In this document: piece by piece, positions 21,814 to 43,257 of the stretch
How the letters are laid out: each line of letters opens with the position of its first letter
Position numbering within the stretch: position 1 is the first letter of the stretch
Source: Ignavibacteria bacterium
GTDB taxonomy: Bacteria; Bacteroidota; Ignavibacteria; Ignavibacteriales; Melioribacteraceae
Reading direction: 5' to 3'
NCBI GenBank assembly: GCA_012719345.1
Contig: JAAYAN010000049.1
Span: forward strand, 1 to 61,576
DNA: 61,576 bases
The notes under the pieces: model-generated
Database searches by the model: none
What the model was told of the DNA's origin: nothing
Seen by the model: the letters and a program-made list of their open reading frames with translations, nothing else
Program-made: the position numbers and the translations under genes

Positions 21814-23697
21814 TCAGCTTGTGGAAACTGAAGGAAAGATTAAAATTACTTTTGTTCCCTTATTCACAACACTTTCAATCAGAAATTCGCCTTTTAACAA
21901 TTTTGTTAGCCGGTATGCAATTGTAAGTCCCAAGCCTGCACCTTCATATTTCCGCTTATATCCCTCATCTTCCTGCTGCATAAAAGGCTCAAGAACTTTT
22001 TCAATTTTGTCCTTATCAATCCCAATTCCGGTATCTTCTATTTCAATGCGGAAATGTGAATCGGAATAGATTGTGCGGATAGTTGCCAAACCCTTTTCTT
22101 TATTATATTTTATTGCATTATCTATAAGCATCCCGATAATTTTCCGGAATTTGTTTTCATCTCCTTCAAAATAAGAATCCTTTTCGTCCAAGTCGATCTC
22201 GAGAGATATATTTTTTGAAAGAGCTTTAATAAAATACTCTTGATATATGCTCTTAATTATTGAATTTACATTGAATATTGCCATATCAAAATTGTAGCTG
22301 CCCGATTCCAAAATTGATACTTCAACAATATTATCCACAAGCGAAAGAAGTCTGTTAACACCTTCTTTAAGCAAAGAAGAAATTTCAGGAAGCGATTCGT
22401 AATTATATGTTTTTAAATCGTCTTCAAGAAGATCGGAATACCCGACAATTGCATTCAGCGGAGTTCTTATTTCGTGCGACATATTTGCTAAAAATGTAGA
22501 TTTTAACTGATTAACCTGAGCTTCTTTTTTAAATGCTTCTTTCAATCTCTTTTCGTTAAGAAGCTGCTCTGTTATATCGGTTAAGTTAATTATAAATAAC
22601 CGCACTTTTTCGAAAGGATCATCAGTATATGTTATTTTGCAAATATATTCCTGCTTTGTAACATTATTCGGATACTTGAACTTTATAAAAGCTTCGGGAA
22701 CATCATTTATTTTTTCAATCATATCTTTAATTACGCTGAAAAAATCTTTTTCTATTGCATCTTCCAGCAATGTAGAAGAATTACACTGAGACGTCACCTT
22801 GAAAATTGAATAAAAGTTGTCGTTTGCGCTTTCAAAAAATAAATTATCCTCTTCTTTCCTTACTATTAAAAGCAAATCCGAAATATTGTTAATAATTGAT
22901 TTTTGTCTTTGTTCGGATTTTCGGATAATTCGGTTTTTTTGAATATAATTTGTTATATCGTGCGCAGTAAGTATAAAGTTCGAAGGTTCGGGACCGCTCT
23001 TTTTAATCGGCGTTAATTTCAATTCTTTGAACCAAAGCTCGCCTTCTTCGGTAATATCCGAAATAAGCTTAATCCATTCTTTCCTATTTTTAATGCTGTC
23101 CGAAAGTTCAGCGTATTCATTTTCAATTAAATAATTTTTAAAAAGATCTGGCAGATATCTTTTGTAGATATTTTCTATATCAACATTTAAAGCAGTTTCA
23201 AATGATTTTGTTGAGTAATTGATTATTCCTTTTTCGTCTGTTATTATTACCGGTACATCTCCGTATTCAAGCGCGTTGTGAAGATTGTTTATCCGGTTTT
23301 CGATTATTCTTCTTTCTTCAACGGTGGTTGTAACCATTATGAAATATTCTTTTTCTTCCAGAAGAATTCTCTCGAGATCGACATAAAAACCTTCGGGAGT
23401 TACTAAATTTTCGGAAAGAATAAACATTTCGAAACTAAGACTTCTGTAATTGCTGTTAACAATTCCCTGCAGAAAGTTTTGCAAATCCGGCTCGGTATGT
23501 ACTTGCGAAAGCGGCTGTCCTTCGGATATTTTAAATTGGCGCGTAAATGCTTTATTGCAAAAAATAATTTTCATTTCGCGGCTTATTACCGCAAAAGGTT
23601 TTGTATCAGGAAGTTCTTCAAGAGCTTTAAAATCCTGAACAGAACGATATTTGTTCAGGTTTTCGAGCGAGTATTGGCTTTCACTTTTTTCAGGCAT
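21814..23697 (-). CDS. PAS-domain sensor histidine kinase
   Basis: 627 residues from the ATG at 23697; a TTG at 23709 is possible but less likely. Three PAS-like regions (about 25-130, 140-255 and 265-385) lead to a HisKA helix with LANMSHEIRTPLNAIVGYSD (phospho-acceptor His408). A complete HATPase_c domain follows, with an N-box (NAIKYNKEKG), DTGIGI, an F-box (EPFMQQE) and GAGLGLTIAYRL. No membrane segment is seen, so it is cytoplasmic. It is the last gene of the flagellar cluster, overlaps the unknown gene before it by eight bases, and could supply phosphate to the nearby receiver proteins. Its signal is unknown. Confidence 0.92.
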   Translation of the reverse strand: MPEKSESQYSLENLNKYRSVQDFKALEELPDTKPFAVISREMKIIFCNKAFTRQFKISEGQPLSQVHTEPDLQNFLQGIVNSNYRSLSFEMFILSENLVTPEGFYVDLERILLEEKEYFIMVTTTVEERRIIENRINNLHNALEYGDVPVIITDEKGIINYSTKSFETALNVDIENIYKRYLPDLFKNYLIENEYAELSDSIKNRKEWIKLISDITEEGELWFKELKLTPIKKSGPEPSNFILTAHDITNYIQKNRIIRKSEQRQKSIINNISDLLLIVRKEEDNLFFESANDNFYSIFKVTSQCNSSTLLEDAIEKDFFSVIKDMIEKINDVPEAFIKFKYPNNVTKQEYICKITYTDDPFEKVRLFIINLTDITEQLLNEKRLKEAFKKEAQVNQLKSTFLANMSHEIRTPLNAIVGYSDLLEDDLKTYNYESLPEISSLLKEGVNRLLSLVDNIVEVSILESGSYNFDMAIFNVNSIIKSIYQEYFIKALSKNISLEIDLDEKDSYFEGDENKFRKIIGMLIDNAIKYNKEKGLATIRTIYSDSHFRIEIEDTGIGIDKDKIEKVLEPFMQQEDEGYKRKYEGAGLGLTIAYRLTKLLKGEFLIESVVNKGTKVILIFPSVSTS

Positions 23698-24346
23698 CAA
23701 TTGTAACAATCCGGTCTATTTTTATATTTTCATCATATGTTGCAGGAAACTCAAATCCGTTAATAATATTGAATTTCCCCAGTTTAGAAATAAAAGTATT
23801 AATTATTGTAAAAATATAATTCAATTCAATTAAAAGCCTGTTATCGATCGATTCTAGCAGCTTATCAATTACCGGAACGTCTTGCCGGTTAATTTCATTT
23901 GCGATATTCAAATCAATAATTCTTTCAAAAAGAATTCCCAATGCATCGAGTGTATTTTTCTCCGGTTCATCAGAAAGATTAATCTTTTCCTTTTTAAATT
24001 CTACTTTTAAAAGCGATTTGTGTCTTTTATTTTTATCATCTAAATACTGCTTGTAAATATTCAAAGAGTGCATTGTTTCTTTATAAAAAAAGCCAAAATC
24101 TATTAATGTTGAAAACTCGAATTCGCTATAAAAAAAGTGAAGATACAATTTTTCATCGCTTAAAATATTTATATCTTTTGGAACCCAGTTAATCTTCGAA
24201 AGATAAATAGCTGCCGGCGAAAAAATTATGGAATCGTTCCCGAAGACTTTTGATATCTGCGGCTTTTTTACATAATTTTCGTATGAGTTTGTCCTGCCGC
24301 TTTTAGGCGACATATCCGGACCGATATTTAAAATACGTTCAAGCAT
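23690..24346 (-). CDS. Unknown cytoplasmic protein in the flagellar phosphorelay operon
   Basis: I do not recognise this 218-residue protein (ATG at 24346; an upstream TTG at 24391 would add 15 residues). It has no signal peptide or membrane segment. The N-terminal half is rich in aromatic residues and strands (about 40-90), and the C-terminal half (about 120-200) is helical, ending in NRLLIELNYIFTIINTFISK. It lies between a receiver-DHp protein and a histidine kinase, overlapping the kinase start, so tight co-expression and a role in the same signalling complex are likely. Confidence 0.7.
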   Translation of the reverse strand: MLERILNIGPDMSPKSGRTNSYENYVKKPQISKVFGNDSIIFSPAAIYLSKINWVPKDINILSDEKLYLHFFYSEFEFSTLIDFGFFYKETMHSLNIYKQYLDDKNKRHKSLLKVEFKKEKINLSDEPEKNTLDALGILFERIIDLNIANEINRQDVPVIDKLLESIDNRLLIELNYIFTIINTFISKLGKFNIINGFEFPATYDENIKIDRIVTIDA

Positions 24347-24399
24347 TATTTTTAGTAATGTATATTTAATATTATCGGCAGGGAGAGGCAAAAATTGAA

Positions 24400-25062
24400 T
24401 TAATCGAACTTAATCATACGATTATTTTGAGCATATTGAATTATTTCGGGATTTTTGATATTTATAAGGGCATCCACGAATTTTTTTATTCTTTCAATCG
24501 ATTCGTTTATTACGTATATGTCTTCTTTGATATTATTTTTTTCTTTTGCCGATAATTCAATTTCCAAATTTTTTTGAGCCATAATAAGACTGCTTAAAGG
24601 ATTATTTATCTGATGCCCTAAAGTGCAAGCCAATTCCACCACTGCTTTACTGTGTTCAATATTTTTAAGCTCGTTTTGAAGATTATGAATTCGTGTACCC
24701 GATCTTATTCTTGCAAGCAATTCCTGGTTTTCAACAGGTTTTACTAAAAAATCATCGGCACCTACATCAAGCCCCATAACTCTGTCTTTAAGCGATGCAC
24801 GCGCAGTGAGTACAATAAAATAAATAAGTTTAAATTCTTCTTTCTCTTTTAAAATATTACAAAGCTGCAACCCGTCCATCTGAGGCATAGTCCAGTCTGC
24901 AACTATAACTTTAGGTGTAAAAGTCTCCAGAACTTTTAATGCTTCAAGACCGTTTGCAGCCGACTGCACCTCATAGTTATTTTTTGTCAGAAGTCTGTCG
25001 AGAATAAACCGTGTATCATTCTCGTCTTCAACAATCAGTATTTTATCTTTTTCAGGTTCTAT
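24400..25062 (-). CDS. Response-regulator receiver fused to a DHp (HisKA-like) domain, no ATPase; non-standard start
   Basis: The receiver (about residues 7-122) needs its first strand (KILIVEDEND), which lies upstream of the first in-frame GTG (24969). The frame stays open back to about 25077 without any ATG, GTG or TTG. The best candidate is an ATA at 25062 overlapping the previous gene's TAG, with AAGGA about 10 bases upstream; CTG and ATT codons also occur there. With that start the protein has 220 residues: phospho-acceptor Asp56, Thr86, Lys108, then a helix pair containing CTLGHQINNPLSSLI (His150) like a kinase dimerisation domain, and no ATP-binding domain. It may pass phosphate between Asp and His. 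A -1 slip at the end of the upstream gene would instead fuse two receivers. Confidence 0.75.
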   Translation of the reverse strand: MEPEKDKILIVEDENDTRFILDRLLTKNNYEVQSAANGLEALKVLETFTPKVIVADWTMPQMDGLQLCNILKEKEEFKLIYFIVLTARASLKDRVMGLDVGADDFLVKPVENQELLARIRSGTRIHNLQNELKNIEHSKAVVELACTLGHQINNPLSSLIMAQKNLEIELSAKEKNNIKEDIYVINESIERIKKFVDALINIKNPEIIQYAQNNRMIKFD

Positions 25063-25451
25063 TTTACCAGATTCCTTACTTTATCTAAAAACATTTTAAA
25101 ATCCGTAATCGGCTTAACAATATAATCATCCGCCGGACATTCATCAAAATTTAAGCTACTCTTTGTTAATTTTTTATAAGCAGTTATCATAATTAAAGGA
25201 ATATCTTTAAACTTTTCATCTTTTTTTATGAGATGGGTTAAATTCAATCCGTCATATTTCTGATTTTTATAAAAAGTATTTTTTAAAGAAACATCCATTA
25301 TTATTAAACTCACAATTCCTTTTTCTAAAGCTTCAAAAGCTGTGTTACCGTCTTCAGTCTGTATCAGCTCAAATTCATCTTTCGGGAAAAGATAAGAATA
25401 AAACTGTTGCGTAAAAGGATCGTCTTCAATAATTAACAATGTCTTTTTCAT
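25059..25451 (-). CDS. Single-domain response regulator
   Basis: 130 residues, one CheY-like receiver. The acidic pocket is Glu9/Asp10-Asp11 (IIEDDPF), the acceptor Asp53 (IIMDVSL), Thr90 and Lys113 (IVKPITD). There is an insert after beta-3 (KNTFYKNQKYDG) that lengthens the usual loop. No output domain, so it should act by protein contact, like CheY or Spo0F. It overlaps motB by four bases (ATGA) upstream and a receiver-DHp protein downstream. A motor-binding or relay role is inferred from position. Confidence 0.88.
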   Translation of the reverse strand: MKKTLLIIEDDPFTQQFYSYLFPKDEFELIQTEDGNTAFEALEKGIVSLIIMDVSLKNTFYKNQKYDGLNLTHLIKKDEKFKDIPLIMITAYKKLTKSSLNFDECPADDYIVKPITDFKMFLDKVRNLVK

Positions 25452-26233
25452 ATATTTTCATTGTATTTAACAATAATGCTTATCCTTCGGTTGGCCGGAT
25501 TTAAAGAATCTTCTTTAACTTTTAATCTGTTAGCCGCATACCCTCTTATTTCATCTATTTGTTCCATATTAAGTCCGCCTTCAATAAGTGTTCTGCGTGC
25601 AGAATTTGCACGGTCGGCACTCAATTCGTAATTAGTGTAACCCAAATTTCCGCCTGCATAAGCGCGTGAATCTGTATGTCCTTCAATTATCAGTTTATTG
25701 TTTAATTTAGAAAGTTCGGATGCTATCATTAAAAGCAGTTCACGAGGTTTTTTTTTCAGAGTTGCCGTTCCTATTTCAAAAAACACATCGTCTTTGCTAT
25801 CCATAATTTCAATTTTCAAACCTTCTTCAACAATTTCTATGCTAATACTTTCTTTTAGATTATCAAATTTCTCGCTTCCTTTAAGATGGTTAGACAGTTC
25901 TTGTCCCATTGCTTCAAGCTTTGCCCTTTCTCTTTCCCTGAAAGCTTCTTCATCAAGTACTTTCGGGGCAAGCGATGTTTTACCTTCCTCGTCAACAAAA
26001 GATTGTCCCTGCCCGATATTATATCCAAGCGGGTCTTTAAAATATCCGGCAACAGCTTCTTTCACTTTCGAATCCTGACCCATAATCCAAAGTACAATAA
26101 AAAGTGCCATCATTGCTGTAACAAAATCGGCATAAGCTACCTTCCAAGCTCCGCCATGATGACCTCCGCCTCCTTTTTTGGGCTTCTTTATTATTATGGG
26201 CTCTTGATTATGATCGCCCAGATCCATTGCCAT
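25448..26233 (-). CDS. motB: Flagellar stator protein MotB (pair 1)
   Basis: 261 residues. A Gly/His-rich N-terminus (KKGGGGHHGGAWKVAYADF) precedes a single membrane helix (about 36-52) with the ion-binding Asp36 in AYADFVTAMMALFIVLW. The C-terminal OmpA-like domain (about 135-255) has IEGHTDSRAYAGGN and ELSADRANSARRTL and anchors the stator to peptidoglycan. This is the LafU/proton-type MotB form. The gene overlaps motA by one base and the receiver gene by four, so stator and regulator are co-translated. Confidence 0.95.
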   Translation of the reverse strand: MAMDLGDHNQEPIIIKKPKKGGGGHHGGAWKVAYADFVTAMMALFIVLWIMGQDSKVKEAVAGYFKDPLGYNIGQGQSFVDEEGKTSLAPKVLDEEAFRERERAKLEAMGQELSNHLKGSEKFDNLKESISIEIVEEGLKIEIMDSKDDVFFEIGTATLKKKPRELLLMIASELSKLNNKLIIEGHTDSRAYAGGNLGYTNYELSADRANSARRTLIEGGLNMEQIDEIRGYAANRLKVKEDSLNPANRRISIIVKYNENI

Positions 26234-27084
26234 TATTTGCCTCTCAGATAATTTTCAAGTTCCGAAAAAGAGGGGCGCGATCCAGAATAAATTGTTCTTC
26301 TGCCAATTTCAACTGCAACAATTGGAGGATTTCCTTTGGCATAAGCAACAACACAAGCTTTTATTGTTTCGAGATAACGGACTTCATCTTCAATCATATG
26401 TTCAATATTTGTAGCAAGAGGATTTACAAATCCATAAGAAAGTAAAACACCCAGAAACGTCCCAACTAAAGCAGCTGCAACGTGATGCCCAACTGCTTCT
26501 GCTCCGTCGTTTATACTTCCCATTGTAACAATAATTCCTAAAACCGCTGCAACAATTCCCAACCCGGGAAATGCATCGCCAACTTTAGCTAAAAGGTGAG
26601 CCGAAGGTTTTTGCTCAGCTTCAAATGTTTCAATTTCAACATCCATTAAAGCTTCCACTTCGTGAGGAGGCACGCCGCCCGAAAGCATAACTTTAAGCGT
26701 ATCGCATAAATATGTAATTGCTGTTTTATTGGATATAAGAGTTGCGTTTGATGAAAAGATCTCACTTTCGTTTGGATTTTCTATGTGTTTTTCAATTGCA
26801 AGAAGACCATCGCGCTGAGCAACCAGAAATAAATCGTATAATACTTTCAATAATTTTAATGTATCGTCTTTTGAAGCGTGTTTCGCTTTTATTGCCTTAG
26901 GAATTGAACCGACCAGTTTAATAAGAGTTTCTTTTGGCGCCATTATTAAAAGACTGCCGATAGCTGCGCCTCCAATTGTCACAAACTCCGAAATCTGAAT
27001 AAGTGTTATTAGATTTCCCCCGGCCATCGAAAAACCTACTACAAGACTTACAGCTACAACGGCTGCTCCAATAAGAATAAACAT
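26233..27084 (-). CDS. motA: Flagellar stator protein MotA (pair 1, long enterobacterial type)
   Basis: 283 residues, near the length of the enterobacterial MotA (about 295). Four membrane helices: about 2-22, 33-50, 170-190 and 203-225. The cytoplasmic loop carries the charged motor-contact segment AQRDGLLAIEKHIENP. The pore helices have PGLGIVAAVLGIIVTMGSI and GTFLGVLLSYGF. Together with MotB it makes a 5:2 ion channel that drives rotation against FliG. It is preceded by a 24-base gap after the receiver-HPt gene and is clearly different from the second MotA of this cluster. Confidence 0.95.
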   Translation of the reverse strand: MFILIGAAVVAVSLVVGFSMAGGNLITLIQISEFVTIGGAAIGSLLIMAPKETLIKLVGSIPKAIKAKHASKDDTLKLLKVLYDLFLVAQRDGLLAIEKHIENPNESEIFSSNATLISNKTAITYLCDTLKVMLSGGVPPHEVEALMDVEIETFEAEQKPSAHLLAKVGDAFPGLGIVAAVLGIIVTMGSINDGAEAVGHHVAAALVGTFLGVLLSYGFVNPLATNIEHMIEDEVRYLETIKACVVAYAKGNPPIVAVEIGRRTIYSGSRPSFSELENYLRGK

Positions 27085-27108
27085 AAAATATTGTCCGAAT
27101 TTTGAATT

Positions 27109-27810
27109 CTATTTTATATTATCGATAATTTGAAATAATTTATTACACTTAAATTCAACAAAAATCCAATCGGTTGCAGATTTCATCTCGCGGGCTTCAA
27201 TTTCTTTTGATATTTCGGTAATTTCGGGGTATCCAATTGTTCCGCCGGCACCTTTAAATTCGTGAATTATCATTTTCAGTGATTCTTCATTCTTGGTTTT
27301 TATTGCCTGCTGTATAGTTTTCTTTTTTGCAGGATATGTGTTAAGAAAAAAAGTTACAAGTTTTGATTGTATTCCAACAGTTTCGTCATTTGAGTTCGCC
27401 TTTAAAACTGCTGCAGGTTTTTTATCCTTTTCATTAATCAATTCTTCAACATATTTTAATATTACGCTTTTCTGCAAAGGTTTCGAAACTACTTTGTCGG
27501 CTCCGGCTTCAATTGCAGCTAAAACATTAGGACGCGCAGTATTTGCGCTTATTACAACAGTTGGTATATCCTGAATATCTTTAAGGACTTTTTTTACCTG
27601 AAGCATTTTAATACCGTCGAAATTAGGCATCATCAAATCAAGAAATATAATATCTGGTTTTTCTTCAGCAGCCTTCTGAATTCCCTCCAAACCATCGGAA
27701 CAAGTTATTACTTCGTAACTGTTGCTCCCGAAAATTTCTTTGAAAAGATTTAAAATAACATCAGAATCGTCAACAACCAGGATTTTAATTTTTCTGCTGG
27801 TCTTTATCAC
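27109..27810 (-). CDS. Response regulator fused to an HPt domain
   Basis: 233 residues: a CheY-like receiver (about 7-125; acceptor Asp58 in IIFLDLMMP, Lys110) and a C-terminal HPt four-helix domain (about 145-225) with phospho-acceptor His183 in MIIHEFKGAGGTIG. Such proteins relay phosphate from a kinase through Asp to His and on to another receiver. The gene's start overlaps csrA by 26 bases, and motA follows. With the receiver, receiver-DHp and kinase genes downstream, it forms a multi-step relay that seems dedicated to motility. Confidence 0.9.
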   Translation of the reverse strand: MIKTSRKIKILVVDDSDVILNLFKEIFGSNSYEVITCSDGLEGIQKAAEEKPDIIFLDLMMPNFDGIKMLQVKKVLKDIQDIPTVVISANTARPNVLAAIEAGADKVVSKPLQKSVILKYVEELINEKDKKPAAVLKANSNDETVGIQSKLVTFFLNTYPAKKKTIQQAIKTKNEESLKMIIHEFKGAGGTIGYPEITEISKEIEAREMKSATDWIFVEFKCNKLFQIIDNIK

Positions 27811-28057
27811 TTGAATCTGTTTTTATTTTGTTAACGTTCATCTTTGAAATATCCGGTATTTCACCCAAAGCAATTTTTTGGGATGCTTCAACAATCTGCT
27901 CCTTTAGCTTTTGGTAAACTTCCTCGCGCATAACCTTAACTTCCGGAGGAGCTTCGATACCAAGTTTTACCTGATTTTCGGATATGGTTACAATTTTAAC
28001 TATAATATCCGACCCGATTCTGATTTTTTCGTTTTCTCTTCTTGATAGTACAAGCAT
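27785..28057 (-). CDS. csrA: RNA-binding carbon storage regulator CsrA
   Basis: 90 residues; CsrA is usually about 61-75, and the first 60 fit it well (MLVLSRRENEKIRIGSDIIV, GIEAPPEVKVMREEVYQKL). The N-terminal LSRR and C-terminal VMREE residues line the GGA-binding face. The extra about 30 residues carry a helix and a polar tail (IPDISKMNVNKIK). CsrA binds GGA hairpins in leaders of flagellar mRNAs and blocks translation; FliW, encoded just upstream, antagonises it. A candidate target lies before flgE in this window. Confidence 0.97.
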   Translation of the reverse strand: MLVLSRRENEKIRIGSDIIVKIVTISENQVKLGIEAPPEVKVMREEVYQKLKEQIVEASQKIALGEIPDISKMNVNKIKTDSSDKDQQKN

Positions 28058-28070
28058 AATTTATCTTTTT

Positions 28071-28454
28071 TTAGTTTTCAACAAAAAGTGTATAATTGAT
28101 AATAAACTTCTCGTTATCAATTACTTTTTGAAATCCGATTTTTTCTTCCTGATTAATATAAACAGGAGCTTTTAAATTAATATTAATTTTGGAAGGTTCC
28201 TTGTCTAATTTTACAATTCCGAAAGCCTCTGCGTTTTTTTCCTGCGGATAATCTTTATCCAAAACCCTCAGCGGGAAAAGAGGAAAAACAATTTCCGGCG
28301 TTTCCAAAGAAGTCAACCAGAAAAATATACCATTTTCCTCAGTTAACAAAACATATTTTTTAAGATTTTCGAAACCGAGAATACCTTCCTTAAAGTTGAT
28401 AATCAATTTTTCATCAACTTCAATTTCACCGAATTGTTTTGTTGTTATTTTCAT
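28071..28454 (-). CDS. fliW: Flagellar assembly factor FliW
   Basis: 127 residues, a small beta-barrel. It has the family features TKQFGEIEVDEKLIINFKEG, ILGFENLKKYVLL near the start, and a conserved acidic/proline strand region (NLKAPVYIN). FliW binds free flagellin and CsrA in turn, coupling flagellin secretion to CsrA control. It lies 13 bases upstream of csrA, the standard pairing, and 11 bases after motB2. Confidence 0.96.
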   Translation of the reverse strand: MKITTKQFGEIEVDEKLIINFKEGILGFENLKKYVLLTEENGIFFWLTSLETPEIVFPLFPLRVLDKDYPQEKNAEAFGIVKLDKEPSKININLKAPVYINQEEKIGFQKVIDNEKFIINYTLFVEN

Positions 28455-28465
28455 AGCTCACTTTT

Positions 28466-29137
28466 TTATTTGTTTAAAATTACAATATCTACTCTTCTGT
28501 TCAAAGCTTTTCCTTCATTTGTTTCGTTTGTTGCAATAGGTTTATACGAAGAATATCCCACAATTGAAACTTTTTCAGGATTAACTTCCTGAACTGTCAT
28601 CAAATAATATGCAGTATTTGTAGCGCGCGCAACAGAAAGATGCCAGTTGGAGGCATACTGTCCGCCTAGAACAGGAACATTGTCTGTGTGTCCTTCAATT
28701 CGTATATCGTTTGGCAAAGTTTTAATTATTTCTGCCAGACTTGCTAATACTTTCTGCGAGTTAGCTCCTAAATCCGCTTTGCCCGACTGAAATAAAATAT
28801 CATCCAGAATTCTGATAGTAACTCCTCTTTCATTTTCGATTAGTTTTACTTTCTCACCGTAATTCTGATGTTCTATTACATTTTGCAGTCTTTCCTGTAA
28901 TTTTTCCTGCGGATCGATAATAGTAACATTATCCTGCTCAGGAATTGTTATTTTTTGATTTGCAGCCTTATTAAAATCAGCATTTCCGAAAGTATTTCCC
29001 ATTGCCGAAATCATTTTTTCGTACTTTTGAATATCTATATTAGAAATAGCATATAGTATAATAAATAACCCCAATAAAAGAGTTATCAAATCGGCATACG
29101 TAAGAATGTACCTGTCGGCATTTTCCACTTCAGGCAT
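28466..29137 (-). CDS. motB: Second stator protein MotB (OmpA domain)
   Basis: 223 residues from the ATG at 29137 (MPEVENADRYILTYADLITL). An ATG at 29293 would add 52 residues but would overlap motA2 by 145 bases and has no ribosome-binding site, so I reject it. The membrane helix (about 11-32) carries ion-binding Asp16 (TYADLITLLLGLFIILY). The OmpA-like domain (about 105-215) has RIEGHTDNVPVLGGQYASNW and EGKALNRRVDIVI. It starts 11 bases after the motA2 stop. The form is nearer MotS/PomB or MotD-type than the first pair. Confidence 0.92.
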   Translation of the reverse strand: MPEVENADRYILTYADLITLLLGLFIILYAISNIDIQKYEKMISAMGNTFGNADFNKAANQKITIPEQDNVTIIDPQEKLQERLQNVIEHQNYGEKVKLIENERGVTIRILDDILFQSGKADLGANSQKVLASLAEIIKTLPNDIRIEGHTDNVPVLGGQYASNWHLSVARATNTAYYLMTVQEVNPEKVSIVGYSSYKPIATNETNEGKALNRRVDIVILNK

Positions 29138-29148
29138 TTCTTCGTTAA

Positions 29149-29931
29149 TTATCTTTTTAGAAGTTCCTTTTGTTCGCTTTCGGGCAGCAAGCTGATTAGC
29201 CTCGATCTTATCACCGAAGGAATCTCTCCGCTCTGCAAGGCCAAAACTCCCTCCAAGGTAACTTCCATCATCTGTTTTTCTTCTAAGTGGCATTGTTTTA
29301 ATTTATCTGCTATCGGCAACCAGAACAAATTTGCGCTTAAAACACCCCATAAGGTTGCAATAAAAGCAGATGCTATATTATGAATTAAAATATCAGGGTT
29401 ACTCCCTGCATTTGCTAAAGTCATTATTAAAGCCATAACCGTTCCCAATATTCCCATTGTAGGGGCATATCCGCCCATTTTTTGGAAAATTGAGATGTTA
29501 GAATTATGTCTGTCCTGCATTGCTTTCATTCCTGCATAAGCAATATTTTCAAGCGATTCGGGGTCGGTTCCATCAAGAACAAATCTTATCATACGTTGAG
29601 GGAACCCGTGTTCAAGTTTATGTATATCCTTTTCAATTGCTAAAAGACCGTCCTTTCTCCCTTTTGCAGCTATCTGCACCATAACTGAAATTATCCGATG
29701 GATATCGTATTTTTTTGGGAAATATGCTAACTTCATAAGAGAAAATATTTTCCTGAAATTCTCCCATCCAAAACTTATAATTGCAGCTGAAAAAGTTCCC
29801 CCGAAAACAACAAGCAAAGGCGGAATTAGAAAAAGCGCCGAAACAGAACCGCCTTCAAGCAGATATGCCCCGAAAATAGATACAATGCCAAGCAGTAACC
29901 CGAATACCGCACCATGATTTTTTTGCATCAT
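29149..29931 (-). CDS. motA: Second stator protein MotA (short PomA/MotP-like type)
   Basis: 260 residues, about the PomA/MotP length. Four membrane helices (about 8-27, 34-53, 155-175 and 185-207). The loop carries KGRKDGLLAIEKDIHKLEHGF, and the third helix has QKMGGYAPTMGILGTVMALI, characteristic of the PomA group; many of these conduct sodium, but ion choice cannot be read safely. It overlaps the end of flgL by four bases, tying this stator pair to late hook-junction genes. Confidence 0.93.
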   Translation of the reverse strand: MMQKNHGAVFGLLLGIVSIFGAYLLEGGSVSALFLIPPLLVVFGGTFSAAIISFGWENFRKIFSLMKLAYFPKKYDIHRIISVMVQIAAKGRKDGLLAIEKDIHKLEHGFPQRMIRFVLDGTDPESLENIAYAGMKAMQDRHNSNISIFQKMGGYAPTMGILGTVMALIMTLANAGSNPDILIHNIASAFIATLWGVLSANLFWLPIADKLKQCHLEEKQMMEVTLEGVLALQSGEIPSVIRSRLISLLPESEQKELLKR

Positions 29932-39017: not shown

Positions 39018-39559
39018 TTATTTTGTTCATACAATAAATTTAATTTGGCAGCTAAATGAACTTCACCTTTAGAAACTGATAATTTGCGGGCTATTTCCGT
39101 TATTGCCGCACCGTTTGAATCTATTTTTAATTTTCTGCCAAAAAGCGAAGTTCTTATTTTTTTTAATTTACTGTCCGAAATACTTCCTATTTTTTCTTCT
39201 CTCAATCTTTTGATATTTTCCTTTAAATCTTTATTTCGCAATTTGTTCAATTCAATTTTTCTTCTTCTGTACAGAACCACAATAGCTGCTAAAAATCCGG
39301 CATTAAGCAGAACAATAATTTTCCAATTAATATAATTTATAATATTGTAATTATATTCGGCTTTTTGAACCTGAACCGGCGCAGTAATATTTATTTCTGG
39401 CGTTGGATAATTTTCCGGATTTTTTCCGGTTTCTTCTGCTGTAATTATAGCAGCATTGTCTTCAAGAATTCGTTCAACGCAATCGTCATCTGCAAATTGC
39501 TGCGAAAAAATGATTGCTGTAAATGATACTAAAAGCGAAATAAATTTTATCTTTTTCAT
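39014..39559 (-). CDS. DUF2802-like membrane protein of flagellar clusters
   Basis: 181 residues. A signal-anchor or signal peptide (about 1-20), a short periplasmic segment, a membrane helix at about 82-98 (IIVLLNAGFLAAIVVLY) and a basic cytoplasmic helix region. The C-terminal about 30 residues (AAITEIARKLSVSKGEVHLA) match the short helix-turn-helix-like end of DUF2802 proteins found in flagellar operons. The function is unknown. It overlaps both neighbours by four bases. Confidence 0.65.
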   Translation of the reverse strand: MKKIKFISLLVSFTAIIFSQQFADDDCVERILEDNAAIITAEETGKNPENYPTPEINITAPVQVQKAEYNYNIINYINWKIIVLLNAGFLAAIVVLYRRRKIELNKLRNKDLKENIKRLREEKIGSISDSKLKKIRTSLFGRKLKIDSNGAAITEIARKLSVSKGEVHLAAKLNLLYEQNK

Positions 39560-40863
39560 TGCCTTATCTTTCTCTTTAATGGGAAATTCATTGTTATTGA
39601 CGAGCCTGCGGTATCGTAAGCTTCAATTAAATAATTACCTTCGTGCTTATTCATAAGGTTTTCAACAATGCGCAAATTAAGATCGGATGATTTAAACGAG
39701 CTTTTATTCTTTTCGGTGTAAGGTTTTAAGTTTGCGGTGGAAATTAATTTCAATATTATCTGATCGTTCTTGTATTTTGTCTGTACAATAATTCCGCCTT
39801 CCCCCTTTGAATTAGCTTTAATAAGTCCTATAACATTTGTAAGTATCTGGAATATATAATTCTGATGACTTAACAAAGATGGAATATCCTGTTCAAAATC
39901 CATCACAAGTTCAAAATTGTTATTCTCTAACGTGGATTTTACGAGGTTATAATATTCGTTAATGGAATCGTTAAGATTGCAAGGCTGAATTTTTACATTC
40001 TTCTGATTAAGATTTGAAAATTTCACTAACCGGCTAATCGAAGTATTTATTTTTGCAATCTGCGATTTTATTTTCTTTACATCACTTTCATTGTTTTCGT
40101 TAACAATCATATCAATCTGGCTTACAATAACCTGGAGCGGAGTCATAATGTCTTCAACTATACCTTCGGTAAGTTCGCCAATAGCAGCAAGCCTGAAATC
40201 GTTCGATAATTTTGCCTGATAAGTCTGCACTTCCTCGATGGTTGTATTAAGTTTTATTTTAAGATGAATTTTATCGAGCTTTGAAAGTGTCTGGTTAAGA
40301 AGTATCTGAATTATCTGCTTATCGATGCTTGCAAAACTTTTATGGAATATTGAAGATAGAATGGACAAAATCCCTTTCTTTTTATTATCCTCAAAAATTG
40401 GGAAAATTATAAAATTAAGTTTAGAACCGCCGTTGTTCATACTTTTCAGTTCGGGGATAATCATAGGCTTCTGGGTATCGAAAAGAACATTTAAAATTCC
40501 TTCTCGAAAATAGTGGTTCATTGTTTCTTCGATATTATATTTGTTGTTTCCTACTTCGCTTAATTTGGATAAAGATCCATCGAAAAACAACAAACTTGCA
40601 TCCTTTATGGGAAGTATTCTTTTTAAAGTTAATTTAAATTTTTCAGATATTTCCTGCGGATCTTTCAAATTTGCAATTTCACTAGAAAATGAAATCATAT
40701 TCTGAAACAGATGCGCATATTTTTCTGTTAGCTTAGGAGAATTGTTTTCGGTAGCTACAGCAGCAAACCTGATCTCATTATTATATTCATCGTTCGGACT
40801 GTAAGTCTGAAGAAGTTTATGAAACGGTTCGTAATCCGCATTATTTGTTTTTAATACTCTCAA
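39556..40863 (-). CDS. GAF protein with degenerate histidine kinase domains (pseudokinase)
   Basis: 435 residues. A GAF-like domain (about 55-195) is followed by a HisKA-type helix pair, where the usual G-E-L-x-x-G-I-A-H-E-I-N-N-P-L reads GELTEGIVEDIMTPLQVI: the phospho-acceptor His is replaced by Glu237. The ATP-binding part (about 320-430) keeps an N-box-like helix (QILTNVIGLIKANSKGEGG) but lacks the DxGxG (ISTANLK) and the Gly-rich lid. It therefore probably neither binds ATP well nor autophosphorylates. It could be a scaffold that presents or inhibits receivers of the cluster. It follows two HDOD genes. Confidence 0.8.
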   Translation of the reverse strand: MRVLKTNNADYEPFHKLLQTYSPNDEYNNEIRFAAVATENNSPKLTEKYAHLFQNMISFSSEIANLKDPQEISEKFKLTLKRILPIKDASLLFFDGSLSKLSEVGNNKYNIEETMNHYFREGILNVLFDTQKPMIIPELKSMNNGGSKLNFIIFPIFEDNKKKGILSILSSIFHKSFASIDKQIIQILLNQTLSKLDKIHLKIKLNTTIEEVQTYQAKLSNDFRLAAIGELTEGIVEDIMTPLQVIVSQIDMIVNENNESDVKKIKSQIAKINTSISRLVKFSNLNQKNVKIQPCNLNDSINEYYNLVKSTLENNNFELVMDFEQDIPSLLSHQNYIFQILTNVIGLIKANSKGEGGIIVQTKYKNDQIILKLISTANLKPYTEKNKSSFKSSDLNLRIVENLMNKHEGNYLIEAYDTAGSSITMNFPLKRKIRQ

Positions 40864-41756: not shown

Positions 41757-42638
41757 TTAAAAATTAATTGTTTCCAATTGCTGAGTAAAAATACTGCGGT
41801 AACTTTCAATAAAATCTTCGAGGTAATCTTCATCTCCAAGATTTAAAATATTTATTACTTCTTTATCGAAGATATAGCCTTTATCCCAGTCAAAATCTCC
41901 AATGCCGAGCCTTACAGTCATGTAATCAGCAAGATGTACAATTGCTGCAAGACGGTTATCTCCTTCCAATTCCGAAGGTTTATGATGAAACTGCACAACA
42001 TCTGCAAGAATTGATGGAAGGTTCCATCTTTCAACAAGCGAGCGTGCAATTTCCGTATGGTTCCATCCTAAAACATTAGATTCGGCTTCAAGAAAACTTA
42101 TATTCTCGTTTTTTACTTTTTCAATAATTTCTAAATAATCTTTATTGAAATACTTGTAAATAACAGGTATTCCTAAATCGTGAAGAAGTCCGCCTGTAAA
42201 AGCTTCTCCGCTTACAGGATAGCCGATATCGTCGGCAATTTTTTTTGCTGCAAATGCTGTAACTATTGAATGATACCAATATTTTTTCTGCCCGAATTTT
42301 TTGCTTCCGGCAGTTTTAAAGGCTTCCATCATCGAAAGCGCAATTACTATATTTTTAATGTGATTAAAACCTAATATCACAATTGCAAAATCGATGGTGG
42401 AAACTCTGCGGGGAATACCATAAAGCGGAGAGTTTGCTACTGATAATATTTTTGTTACAAGTCCCTGGTCCTGACTTATAATTTTTCCCAATTGAGAAGC
42501 GCTCGAAGAAGGATTGTCAATTACTTTTGTAATTTCGAAAATTACAATAGGAATTGTAGGCAAATTATAAACCGTGGAAAGTATCCTGCTAGCGCGGTTT
42601 TTCTTTTTTTCTAATATTTCCTGTTCCTGCTCATTCAT
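41757..42638 (-). CDS. HDOD-domain protein (copy 1 of a tandem pair)
   Basis: 293 residues. The same architecture as the next gene: an N-terminal Lys/Glu-rich helix, then HDOD with SQDQGLVTKILSVANSPLYG, STIDFAIVILGFNHIKNIVI and FTGGLLHDLGIPVIYKYFNK, and a C-terminal helix (DYLEDFIESYRSIFTQQLE). It overlaps the end of fliA by eight bases. Tandem duplication with divergence at the ends suggests related but separate partners. A role in setting flagellar number or gene expression is inference. Confidence 0.9.
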   Translation of the reverse strand: MNEQEQEILEKKKNRASRILSTVYNLPTIPIVIFEITKVIDNPSSSASQLGKIISQDQGLVTKILSVANSPLYGIPRRVSTIDFAIVILGFNHIKNIVIALSMMEAFKTAGSKKFGQKKYWYHSIVTAFAAKKIADDIGYPVSGEAFTGGLLHDLGIPVIYKYFNKDYLEIIEKVKNENISFLEAESNVLGWNHTEIARSLVERWNLPSILADVVQFHHKPSELEGDNRLAAIVHLADYMTVRLGIGDFDWDKGYIFDKEVINILNLGDEDYLEDFIESYRSIFTQQLETINF

Positions 42639-43257
42639 ACTTTTTGTTAAGTTTCATTTTCAATTCTTTCATTATTTTAGAGTGAATTTGAGAAACTCGG
42701 GAAATTGTAATATTCAGCACTTCGGCTATTTCGTTATAATTTAAGTTTTCGTAGTAGTAAAGAGTTATAACAAGTCTGTCTCTTTCGTGCAGACTTTTTA
42801 CCGCCTGAATAAGAAGTTCTTTCTGTTCGTCCTTTTGAACTATTTCATCGGGCTTTTCGGCATCGCTTGGAATAATATCGCTTAGCATATATCCGTCCTC
42901 ATTGTCGTAAGGATTATTCAACGATACATTTCTGTAACGCAATTCCGAATCCGGATTTTGATTATTACGCGGTTTAATTTGCAATTTCCTCAGCTCGTCA
43001 ATTATTTTTCCTCGTATCCTCTGGATGGCGTAGGTTTCGAACTTCGTCCCGTATTCCGGGTCAAATCTTTCAATGGCTTCGCTTAATCCCTCAATTCCGA
43101 ATTGGAAATAATCCTTTTCGTCAACAATGTTCAACTTCATAAATTTAGAATGATGGATAACATAATGAACCAGATTTGTGTAGTTAATCATAATTTGTTT
43201 TTTTGTACCCGCATCCGGTTGTTCTTTGTACTTTGTCCATAAAGCCGAGTTATTCAT
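42631..43257 (-). CDS. fliA: RNA polymerase sigma factor for flagellar genes (FliA/sigma-28)
   Basis: 208 residues, slightly shorter than most FliA proteins (about 240). Region 2 (about 20-92) has DYFQFGIEGLSEAIERFDPE and FETYAIQRIRGKIIDELRKL, which is the FliA/WhiG form. Region 4 (about 150-205) has LVITLYYYENLNYNEIAEVL and a recognition helix (NITISRVSQIHSKIMKEL). It would transcribe late flagellar genes. No anti-sigma factor FlgM is found in the window. It overlaps the small membrane protein gene by eight bases. Confidence 0.95.
   Translation of the reverse strand: MNNSALWTKYKEQPDAGTKKQIMINYTNLVHYVIHHSKFMKLNIVDEKDYFQFGIEGLSEAIERFDPEYGTKFETYAIQRIRGKIIDELRKLQIKPRNNQNPDSELRYRNVSLNNPYDNEDGYMLSDIIPSDAEKPDEIVQKDEQKELLIQAVKSLHERDRLVITLYYYENLNYNEIAEVLNITISRVSQIHSKIMKELKMKLNKKYE

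What the first reader, a model, noticed from the sequence alone, without database searches (positions are those of the whole stretch)
21814..27810. Flagellum-linked multi-step phosphorelay without a complete hybrid kinase
Within 6 kb around motA/motB are a receiver-HPt, a lone receiver with a long loop, a receiver-DHp lacking an ATP-binding domain, an unknown protein, and a soluble PAS kinase. The phosphate-handling residues are intact (Asp58/His183; Asp53; Asp56/His150; His408). They look like a relay (kinase, Asp, His, Asp) broken into separate proteins and co-translated with the stator, as though it acts on motor output, not on CheY alone. I know of no described system of this arrangement.
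Basis: partly seen in the sequence, partly recalled or inferred. Interest (0 to 1): 0.75.

Follow-up and report, generated by a model that had tools for sequence, protein, structure and literature searches.

The report
Flagellum-locked phosphorelay of Ignavibacteriales
A set of five signalling proteins sits around a flagellar motor gene pair in essentially every flagellated member of one bacterial order and in almost no member without flagella; one of them is a stripped-down kinase domain that can no longer act as a kinase but keeps the chemistry to pass on or remove phosphate, so this is a real, undescribed flagellar control circuit, though probably not one that acts only on the motor.

Summary
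Seven contiguous minus-strand genes (27810-21814) encode receiver-HPt, MotA, MotB, lone receiver, receiver-DHp without a catalytic domain, an orphan protein and a soluble PAS kinase; the named Asp/His residues are present. It is not a local oddity: the uninterrupted seven-gene array recurs in 63 of 91 fetched loci from three families of Ignavibacteriales. In 126 genomes the receiver-DHp occurs in 84 of 84 FlgI-positive and 1 of 42 FlgI-negative genomes; the orphan family follows the same pattern and was found nowhere else in the class sample. New here: in 87 receiver-DHp proteins the phospho-His and the 'phosphatase' Asn at H+4 are invariant, but the acid at H+1 that HisKA kinases need is gone in 85. 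It is therefore a transmitter or phosphatase, not a broken kinase. The stator-output reading is weakened: one genome without flagella or stators keeps receiver-DHp and kinase beside FlgS, FlgR, FliA and a pseudokinase, and in two others receiver-DHp has moved next to FliA. Best reading: a split phosphosignalling module regulating the flagellar programme, with a stator-tied branch (receiver-HPt, lone receiver). Who phosphorylates whom is untested; the orphan protein's fold is unknown.

The parts
27109..27810 (-). receiver-HPt protein (D58, H183), overlaps the end of csrA by 26 nt
   Evidence: Pfam PF00072 5e-24, PF01627 5.4e-7; D58 75/75 and H183 74/75 in relatives
26233..27084 (-). motA (TIGR03818 type stator)
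   Evidence: TIGR03818 E 1e-99, above cut-off
25448..26233 (-). motB of the same stator, overlaps motA
   Evidence: PF13677, PF00691
25059..25451 (-). lone receiver with long beta3-alpha3 loop (D53), 4-nt overlap with motB
   Evidence: PF00072 2e-14; D53 79/79
24400..25062 (-). receiver-DHp without catalytic domain (D56, H150, N154); ATA in the start position; conserved C-terminal tail Y210/M216
   Evidence: PF00072 3e-28, HisKA 1.5e-5, no HATPase; D56, H150, N154 87/87, acid at H+1 only 2/87
23690..24346 (-). orphan protein (218 aa), family limited to Ignavibacteriales in the sample
   Evidence: no Pfam/NCBIfam/PDB relative; 42/294 class genomes, all in the three families of this order
21814..23697 (-). 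soluble PAS-HisKA-HATPase kinase (H408), the only complete kinase of the array
   Evidence: Pfam; H-box His 72/74, N-box Asn 74/74, G boxes 74/74
27785..28057 (-). csrA, upstream part of the conserved array
   Evidence: conserved order FliW-CsrA-RecHpt
28071..28454 (-). fliW
   Evidence: conserved order
28466..29293 (-). second motB-type gene (MotD/MotS-like)
   Evidence: PF00691, PF13677; best NCBIfam MotD below cut-off
29149..29931 (-). second motA-type gene (MotC/MotP/PomA-like)
   Evidence: PF01618, PF20560; NCBIfam
42631..43257 (-). fliA-like sigma factor; relatives lie directly upstream of receiver-DHp in G034/G042 and two genes upstream in G032
   Evidence: PF04545, PF04542
39556..40863 (-). 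pseudokinase of the same cluster (phospho-acceptor His mostly Glu, degenerate catalytic domain), co-retained with receiver-DHp and kinase in G032
   Evidence: 24-sequence alignment

Best explanation
An order-wide flagellar phosphosignalling module of Ignavibacteriales. The soluble PAS kinase is the only phosphate donor of the array. Receiver-DHp is not a broken kinase but a dedicated, receiver-gated histidine phosphotransferase and/or phosphatase. Receiver-HPt and the lone receiver form a second, stator-linked branch. The module most likely couples a cytosolic signal (PAS domains, with the orphan protein as the kinase's partner) to the flagellar programme, i.e. to gene expression and assembly together with FliA and FlgS/FlgR, and only secondarily, through the stator-flanking receivers, to the motor itself. 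Shown: genes, residues, order-wide conservation, near-exact co-occurrence with flagella, loss of the kinase acid, retention with FliA/FlgS/FlgR in a genome without flagella. Inferred: every phosphotransfer step, the direction of flow, the output and the orphan protein's role.
For: Gene order conserved in three families (63 of 91 loci uninterrupted, most of the rest cut by contig ends). Receiver-DHp in 84/84 FlgI+ and 1/42 FlgI- genomes, orphan family likewise bar G004 and G357. 87 receiver-DHp sequences: D56, H150, N154 invariant; H+1 is K/Q/N/R in 85; in HisKA kinases the H+1 acid is needed only for kinase activity and the H+4 Asn only for phosphatase activity (PMC3510030). Kinase motifs intact in 72-74 of 74. 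G032 (99% complete, no FlgI, no MotB) keeps FlgS-like kinase, FlgR-like activator, FlhF remnant, FliA, pseudokinase, receiver-DHp, kinase in one run, and lacks true receiver-HPt, lone receiver and orphan. Receiver-DHp lies next to FliA in G034/G042. The window's genome has a separate full chemotaxis set and FlgS/FlgR, and flagellated G037, G313, G050 keep receiver-DHp with no CheA found, so the module is not the CheA pathway.
Against: No phosphotransfer data; covariation between domains is weak and not corrected for phylogeny. The G032 and G034/G042 cases are few (one species; two related genera) and the first could be a decaying remnant. Conserved adjacency to motA/motB would also fit a direct stator effect. 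Invariant H150 fits phosphotransfer better than phosphatase action, which needs His little (PMC3510030), so the two roles of receiver-DHp are not separated. Presence of Asn at H+4 does not exclude a pure phosphotransferase.
Confidence: 0.45

Rival explanations
1. Motor-output relay: the phosphorylated lone receiver and/or receiver-HPt binds the stator or switch and changes torque or stator exchange, as Xanthomonas VemR binds FliM.
For: Receiver-HPt is directly upstream of motA in 73 of 74 loci (the exception is a split reading frame in G007) and the lone receiver usually directly downstream of motB; both are absent from flagella-less G032. VemR is a stand-alone receiver from a flagellar-regulator operon that binds FliM when phosphorylated (PMC7036368).
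Against: The entire flagellar cluster is collinear, so adjacency is weak evidence; kinase and receiver-DHp can live without stators (G032) or away from them (G034/G042, G036/G038); the lone receiver is missing in flagellated G037 and G313.
Confidence: 0.3
2. Pure linear phosphorelay kinase -> receiver-DHp(D->H) -> lone receiver -> HPt -> a distant regulator such as the FlgR-like activator.
For: All phospho-residues conserved. Top covarying positions between kinase DHp and the receiver of receiver-DHp include canonical interface sites (6 of 30 vs 2.0 expected), and HPt with lone receiver (5 vs 1.1). Receiver-DHp lies in the same run as FlgS/FlgR/FliA in G032.
Against: FlgR has its own adjacent kinase; lone receiver is dispensable (G037, G313); the DHp of receiver-DHp shows no enriched covariation with any receiver; the lost H+1 acid and invariant H+4 Asn point at phosphatase chemistry.
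Confidence: 0.3
3. No single pathway: several independent regulators share the cluster because gene order in this order is frozen.
For: Other unrelated regulators (HDOD proteins, CsrA/FliW) are equally fixed in the cluster; components separate or are lost individually in some genomes (G013 and G050 lack the kinase after the orphan gene; G037/G313 lack the lone receiver).
Against: Where genes moved they moved in pairs (orphan+kinase in G036/G038) and all were still kept in the genome; receiver-DHp+kinase are co-retained in G032.
Confidence: 0.15

Closest known systems
HptB-HsbR-HsbA pathway of Pseudomonas (PMC5085249)
   Same: Stand-alone His transfer protein and receiver protein encoded inside a flagellar gene region; multi-step relay that ends on the FlgM/FliA branch of flagellar gene expression.
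   Different: Fed by several hybrid kinases encoded elsewhere; [quoted passage not shown] not adjacent to stator genes.
CckA-ChpT-CtrA / DivL-DivK of alphaproteobacteria (own knowledge; ChpT in PMC9981736)
   Same: A DHp-type protein that is not a kinase, a lone receiver and a pseudokinase around a flagellar regulatory programme.
   Different: ChpT has a degenerate catalytic-like domain and no receiver; CckA is a hybrid kinase; CtrA is a DNA-binding regulator; no such protein is in this array.
HpaS-VemR of Xanthomonas (PMC7036368)
   Same: Kinase acting on a stand-alone receiver encoded in a flagellar-regulator operon, motility output.
   Different: Single-step, kinase unlinked, operon with rpoN2 and fleQ instead of the stator.
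FlgS/FlgR-type kinase-activator pair
   Same: Flagellar two-component control.
   Different: Present separately in the same genome (L145 9578-11696); the array here has no DNA-binding regulator.
Paralogous receiver-DHp of the same order (NH[EK]IKQPL type, e.g. L231 7646-8332)
   Same: Same length, same receiver-DHp layout without catalytic domain, similar C-terminal tail.
   Different: Gln instead of Asn at H+4, acid partly kept at H+1; next to a large hybrid kinase and an NtrC-type gene; present in genomes without flagella.

Membership tests
Multi-step phosphorelay | autophosphorylating kinase with intact H, N and G boxes | tested here: met
   sequence motifs only
Multi-step phosphorelay | at least two phosphorylatable receivers and one separate His transfer domain | tested here: met
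   three receivers, one HPt, one DHp; residues conserved
Multi-step phosphorelay | demonstrated His-Asp-His-Asp transfer between the parts | not testable with these tools
   needs purified proteins; covariation only suggestive
Hybrid histidine kinase | kinase fused to a receiver | tested here: not met
   kinase is PAS-HisKA-HATPase only
ChpT/Spo0B-type phosphotransferase | DHp followed by a degenerate catalytic-like domain | tested here: not met
   protein ends 70 residues after H150, no catalytic domain, and carries an N-terminal receiver
Active HisKA histidine kinase (for receiver-DHp) | acid at H+1 and a HATPase domain | tested here: not met
   85 of 87 lack the acid; the window protein has no HATPase hit
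HisKA phosphatase | Asn/Thr at H+4 | tested here: met
   N154 in 87/87; activity itself not testable
CheA chemotaxis pathway | CheA-type kinase in or required with the module | tested here: not met
   CheA lies elsewhere; flagellated G037, G313, G050 have receiver-DHp but no CheA hit
HptB-HsbR-HsbA pathway | HsbR-type phosphatase/kinase and HsbA-type anti-anti-sigma output proteins | tested here: not met
   no such domain among the seven proteins
FlgM (for the orphan protein) | FlgM domain | tested here: not met
   no Pfam hit; a separate FlgM exists; only a short motif resembles it (hhalign prob 14%)

The most novel reading that the evidence does not exclude
A flagellar checkpoint of a new kind: the orphan protein, whose disordered N-terminus and D-S-I-x-x-S-P-A motif resemble the start of FlgM, reports flagellar export or assembly state to the PAS kinase, and a natural kinase-minus/phosphatase-plus receiver-DHp acts as a receiver-gated phosphatase that sets the phosphorylation of the stator-flanking receivers.
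Probability: 0.1. Interest if true: 0.85.

Novelty: new variant of a known kind. Interest (0 to 1): 0.6.

Why it matters
It would be a third phosphosignalling system dedicated to the flagellum, beside chemotaxis and FlgS/FlgR, kept in essentially every flagellated species of a whole order. It offers a natural kinase-dead DHp with 87 sequences, which makes a direct test of the kinase and phosphatase residues of HisKA domains outside a kinase possible, and an orphan protein family whose presence predicts flagella. It also gives natural deletion strains (G032, G037/G313, G050) for working out which part does what.

Tried and rejected
Orphan protein as a known fold: Pfam, NCBIfam and PDB profile searches give nothing credible (6h3x polyprotein at E 1e-4 judged compositional); AlphaFold with 5 diverse sequences has pLDDT 58 and no Foldseek match at E<=0.001. 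Orphan as the missing FlgM: rejected, a FlgM-like gene lies on another contig. Receiver-DHp as a truncated kinase or assembly error: rejected by 87 relatives of the same length with a conserved tail. Fusion of lone receiver and receiver-DHp by frameshift at AAAATAG: rejected as a family trait, relatives use their own ATG/TTG/GTG, often in a stop-start overlap. Module as a CheA replacement: rejected, CheA is present in most flagellated genomes. AlphaFold of receiver-DHp was poor (pLDDT 56, close sequences only) and is not used. Covariation wiring is kept as a hint only.

Full report
Observation. Domain assignments and the named residues hold. Receiver-DHp lacks any canonical start; an ATA that overlaps the lone receiver's stop (ATAG, 25059-25062) stands at the position of the relatives' start.

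Conservation. A search of 58 relatives found the orphan protein in 36. Fetching the surroundings showed the same order, MotA2-MotB2-FliW-CsrA-RecHPt-MotA1-MotB1-Rec-RecDHp-orphan-kinase, in genome after genome. With 91 loci the uninterrupted seven-gene array is present in 63; most of the remainder are cut by contig ends. Named relatives are Melioribacter, Melioribacteraceae and Ignavibacteriales, so the window is from Ignavibacteria. In 126 genomes of the order, FlgI marks 84; receiver-DHp is in those 84 plus G032; the orphan is in the same set minus G004 plus G357, a fragmented assembly that does have MotB. In a class-wide sample of 294 the orphan was found only in this order.

Residues. Across 74-87 sequences the phospho-acceptors are essentially invariant: receiver-HPt D58 75/75 and H183 74/75, lone receiver D53 79/79, receiver-DHp D56 and H150 87/87, kinase His 72/74 with N and G boxes 74/74. 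In receiver-DHp the residue after the His is Lys 51, Gln 19, Asn 14, Arg 1 and Glu only 2, while Asn at H+4 is 87/87. Willett and Kirby showed for four HisKA kinases that the acid at H+1 is needed for kinase but not phosphatase activity and the Asn/Thr at H+4 for phosphatase only, and for CrdS that the His itself is nearly dispensable for phosphatase (PMC3510030). Receiver-DHp thus has the pattern of a kinase-minus, phosphatase-plus domain, in addition to lacking the catalytic domain; the strict invariance of the His argues that it is also a phospho-acceptor. Its C-terminal tail (invariant Tyr210, Met216 86/87) is a further unexplained constraint.

Not unique in layout. The window's genome and others in the order carry a second receiver-DHp family (NH[EK]IKQPLTL, Gln at H+4) beside a large hybrid kinase; it is present in genomes without flagella. 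So the layout is a regional habit; the flagellar version differs in its active-site pattern.

Exceptions that inform function. G036 and G038 keep the first five genes together and have orphan+kinase about 28-30 kb away. G034 and G042 keep orphan+kinase in the array but have receiver-DHp elsewhere, directly after a FliA-like sigma gene. G037 and G313 lack the lone receiver and also gave no CheA hit. G013 and G050 lack the kinase downstream of the orphan gene. Most telling, G032 (99% complete) has no FlgI and no MotB, no true receiver-HPt (best 88 bits against 209-302 in flagellated controls), no true lone receiver (70 against 164-172 bits) and no orphan, yet keeps FlgS-like kinase, FlgR-like activator, FlhF remnant, FliA, pseudokinase, receiver-DHp and a shortened kinase in one run. 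This splits the module in two: a stator-tied branch (receiver-HPt, lone receiver) and a kinase/receiver-DHp core that belongs with the flagellar regulators. The genus has only one genome in the collection, so it is a single case.

Other systems in the same genome. Contig C157 carries two flagellins, FlgM, FlgS-like kinase, FlgR-like activator, CheR, two CheY, a CheZ-like protein, CheA and CheB (names given by reading the sequences, CheA confirmed by PF02895 and FlgM weakly by PF04316). The module is therefore additional to chemotaxis and FlgS/FlgR. The cluster also holds a conserved GAF-like pseudokinase at 39556-40863 whose acceptor His is mostly Glu.

Mechanism. I favour a module in which the PAS kinase, probably controlled by its constant neighbour the orphan protein, phosphorylates one or more of the receivers, with receiver-DHp passing on or draining phosphate under control of its own receiver, and with the flagellar gene programme (FliA, FlgS/FlgR) as main output and the stator-flanking receivers as a possible branch to the motor. 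Covariation gives weak support for kinase with the receiver of receiver-DHp (6 of the top 30 pairs in the interface, 2.0 expected) and HPt with the lone receiver (5, 1.1 expected), on an effective 41 sequences and nine comparisons. The motor-output reading stays open because receiver-HPt (73 of 74 loci) and, where present, the lone receiver stay beside motA/motB, and because VemR of Xanthomonas shows that such receivers can bind FliM (PMC7036368).

Novelty. Searches of the open literature found no description of this arrangement; the Melioribacter roseus genome paper mentions flagellar genes only in general terms (PMC3534657). Closest in function is HptB-HsbR-HsbA of Pseudomonas (PMC5085249), closest in parts CckA-ChpT-CtrA/DivL-DivK. 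Defining features of those families were tested and not met, so this is a new variant of a known kind.

Noticed in passing
window 25059-25062: ATA stands where all 76 relatives with both genes have ATG (50), TTG (22) or GTG (4) for receiver-DHp; either a rare start codon or a base error in this assembly.
   Followed up: partly
window 39556-40863: Conserved flagellar-cluster pseudokinase: GAF-like N-terminus, DHp with His mostly replaced by Glu, degenerate catalytic domain; no Pfam hit; present in all 20 upstream regions fetched.
   Followed up: partly
window 25448-29931: Two different stator gene pairs (MotAB TIGR03818 type and a MotCD/PomA type) in one run, conserved across the order.
   Followed up: no
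L178 1006-8258 (G032): Genome without FlgI and MotB that keeps only the regulators of the flagellar cluster in one run: FlgS, FlgR, FlhF remnant, FliA, pseudokinase, receiver-DHp, kinase.
   Followed up: yes
L231 7646-8332, L230 4903-5637, L253-L263: Second receiver-DHp family without catalytic domain (NH[EK]IKQPLTL), also in genomes without flagella.
   Followed up: partly
window 24346-23690, residues 38-50 of the orphan protein: Motif D-S-I-x-x-S-P-A-x-x-x-L after a disordered start resembles D-K-L-E-I-S-x-E-A-x-x-L of the local FlgM proteins (hhalign E 0.0019, probability 14%).
   Followed up: partly
G037, G313, G050: Flagellated genomes with no CheA hit; the first two also lack the lone receiver.
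   Followed up: partly
L198 and L199 (G355): This genome has the array on two contigs (C6 and C49); duplication or mixed bin.
   Followed up: no
L043 7288-8589 (G054): A 434-codon open frame spans the receiver-DHp gene and the region upstream of it; GC-rich genome, so a true fusion with the lone receiver was not established.
   Followed up: partly
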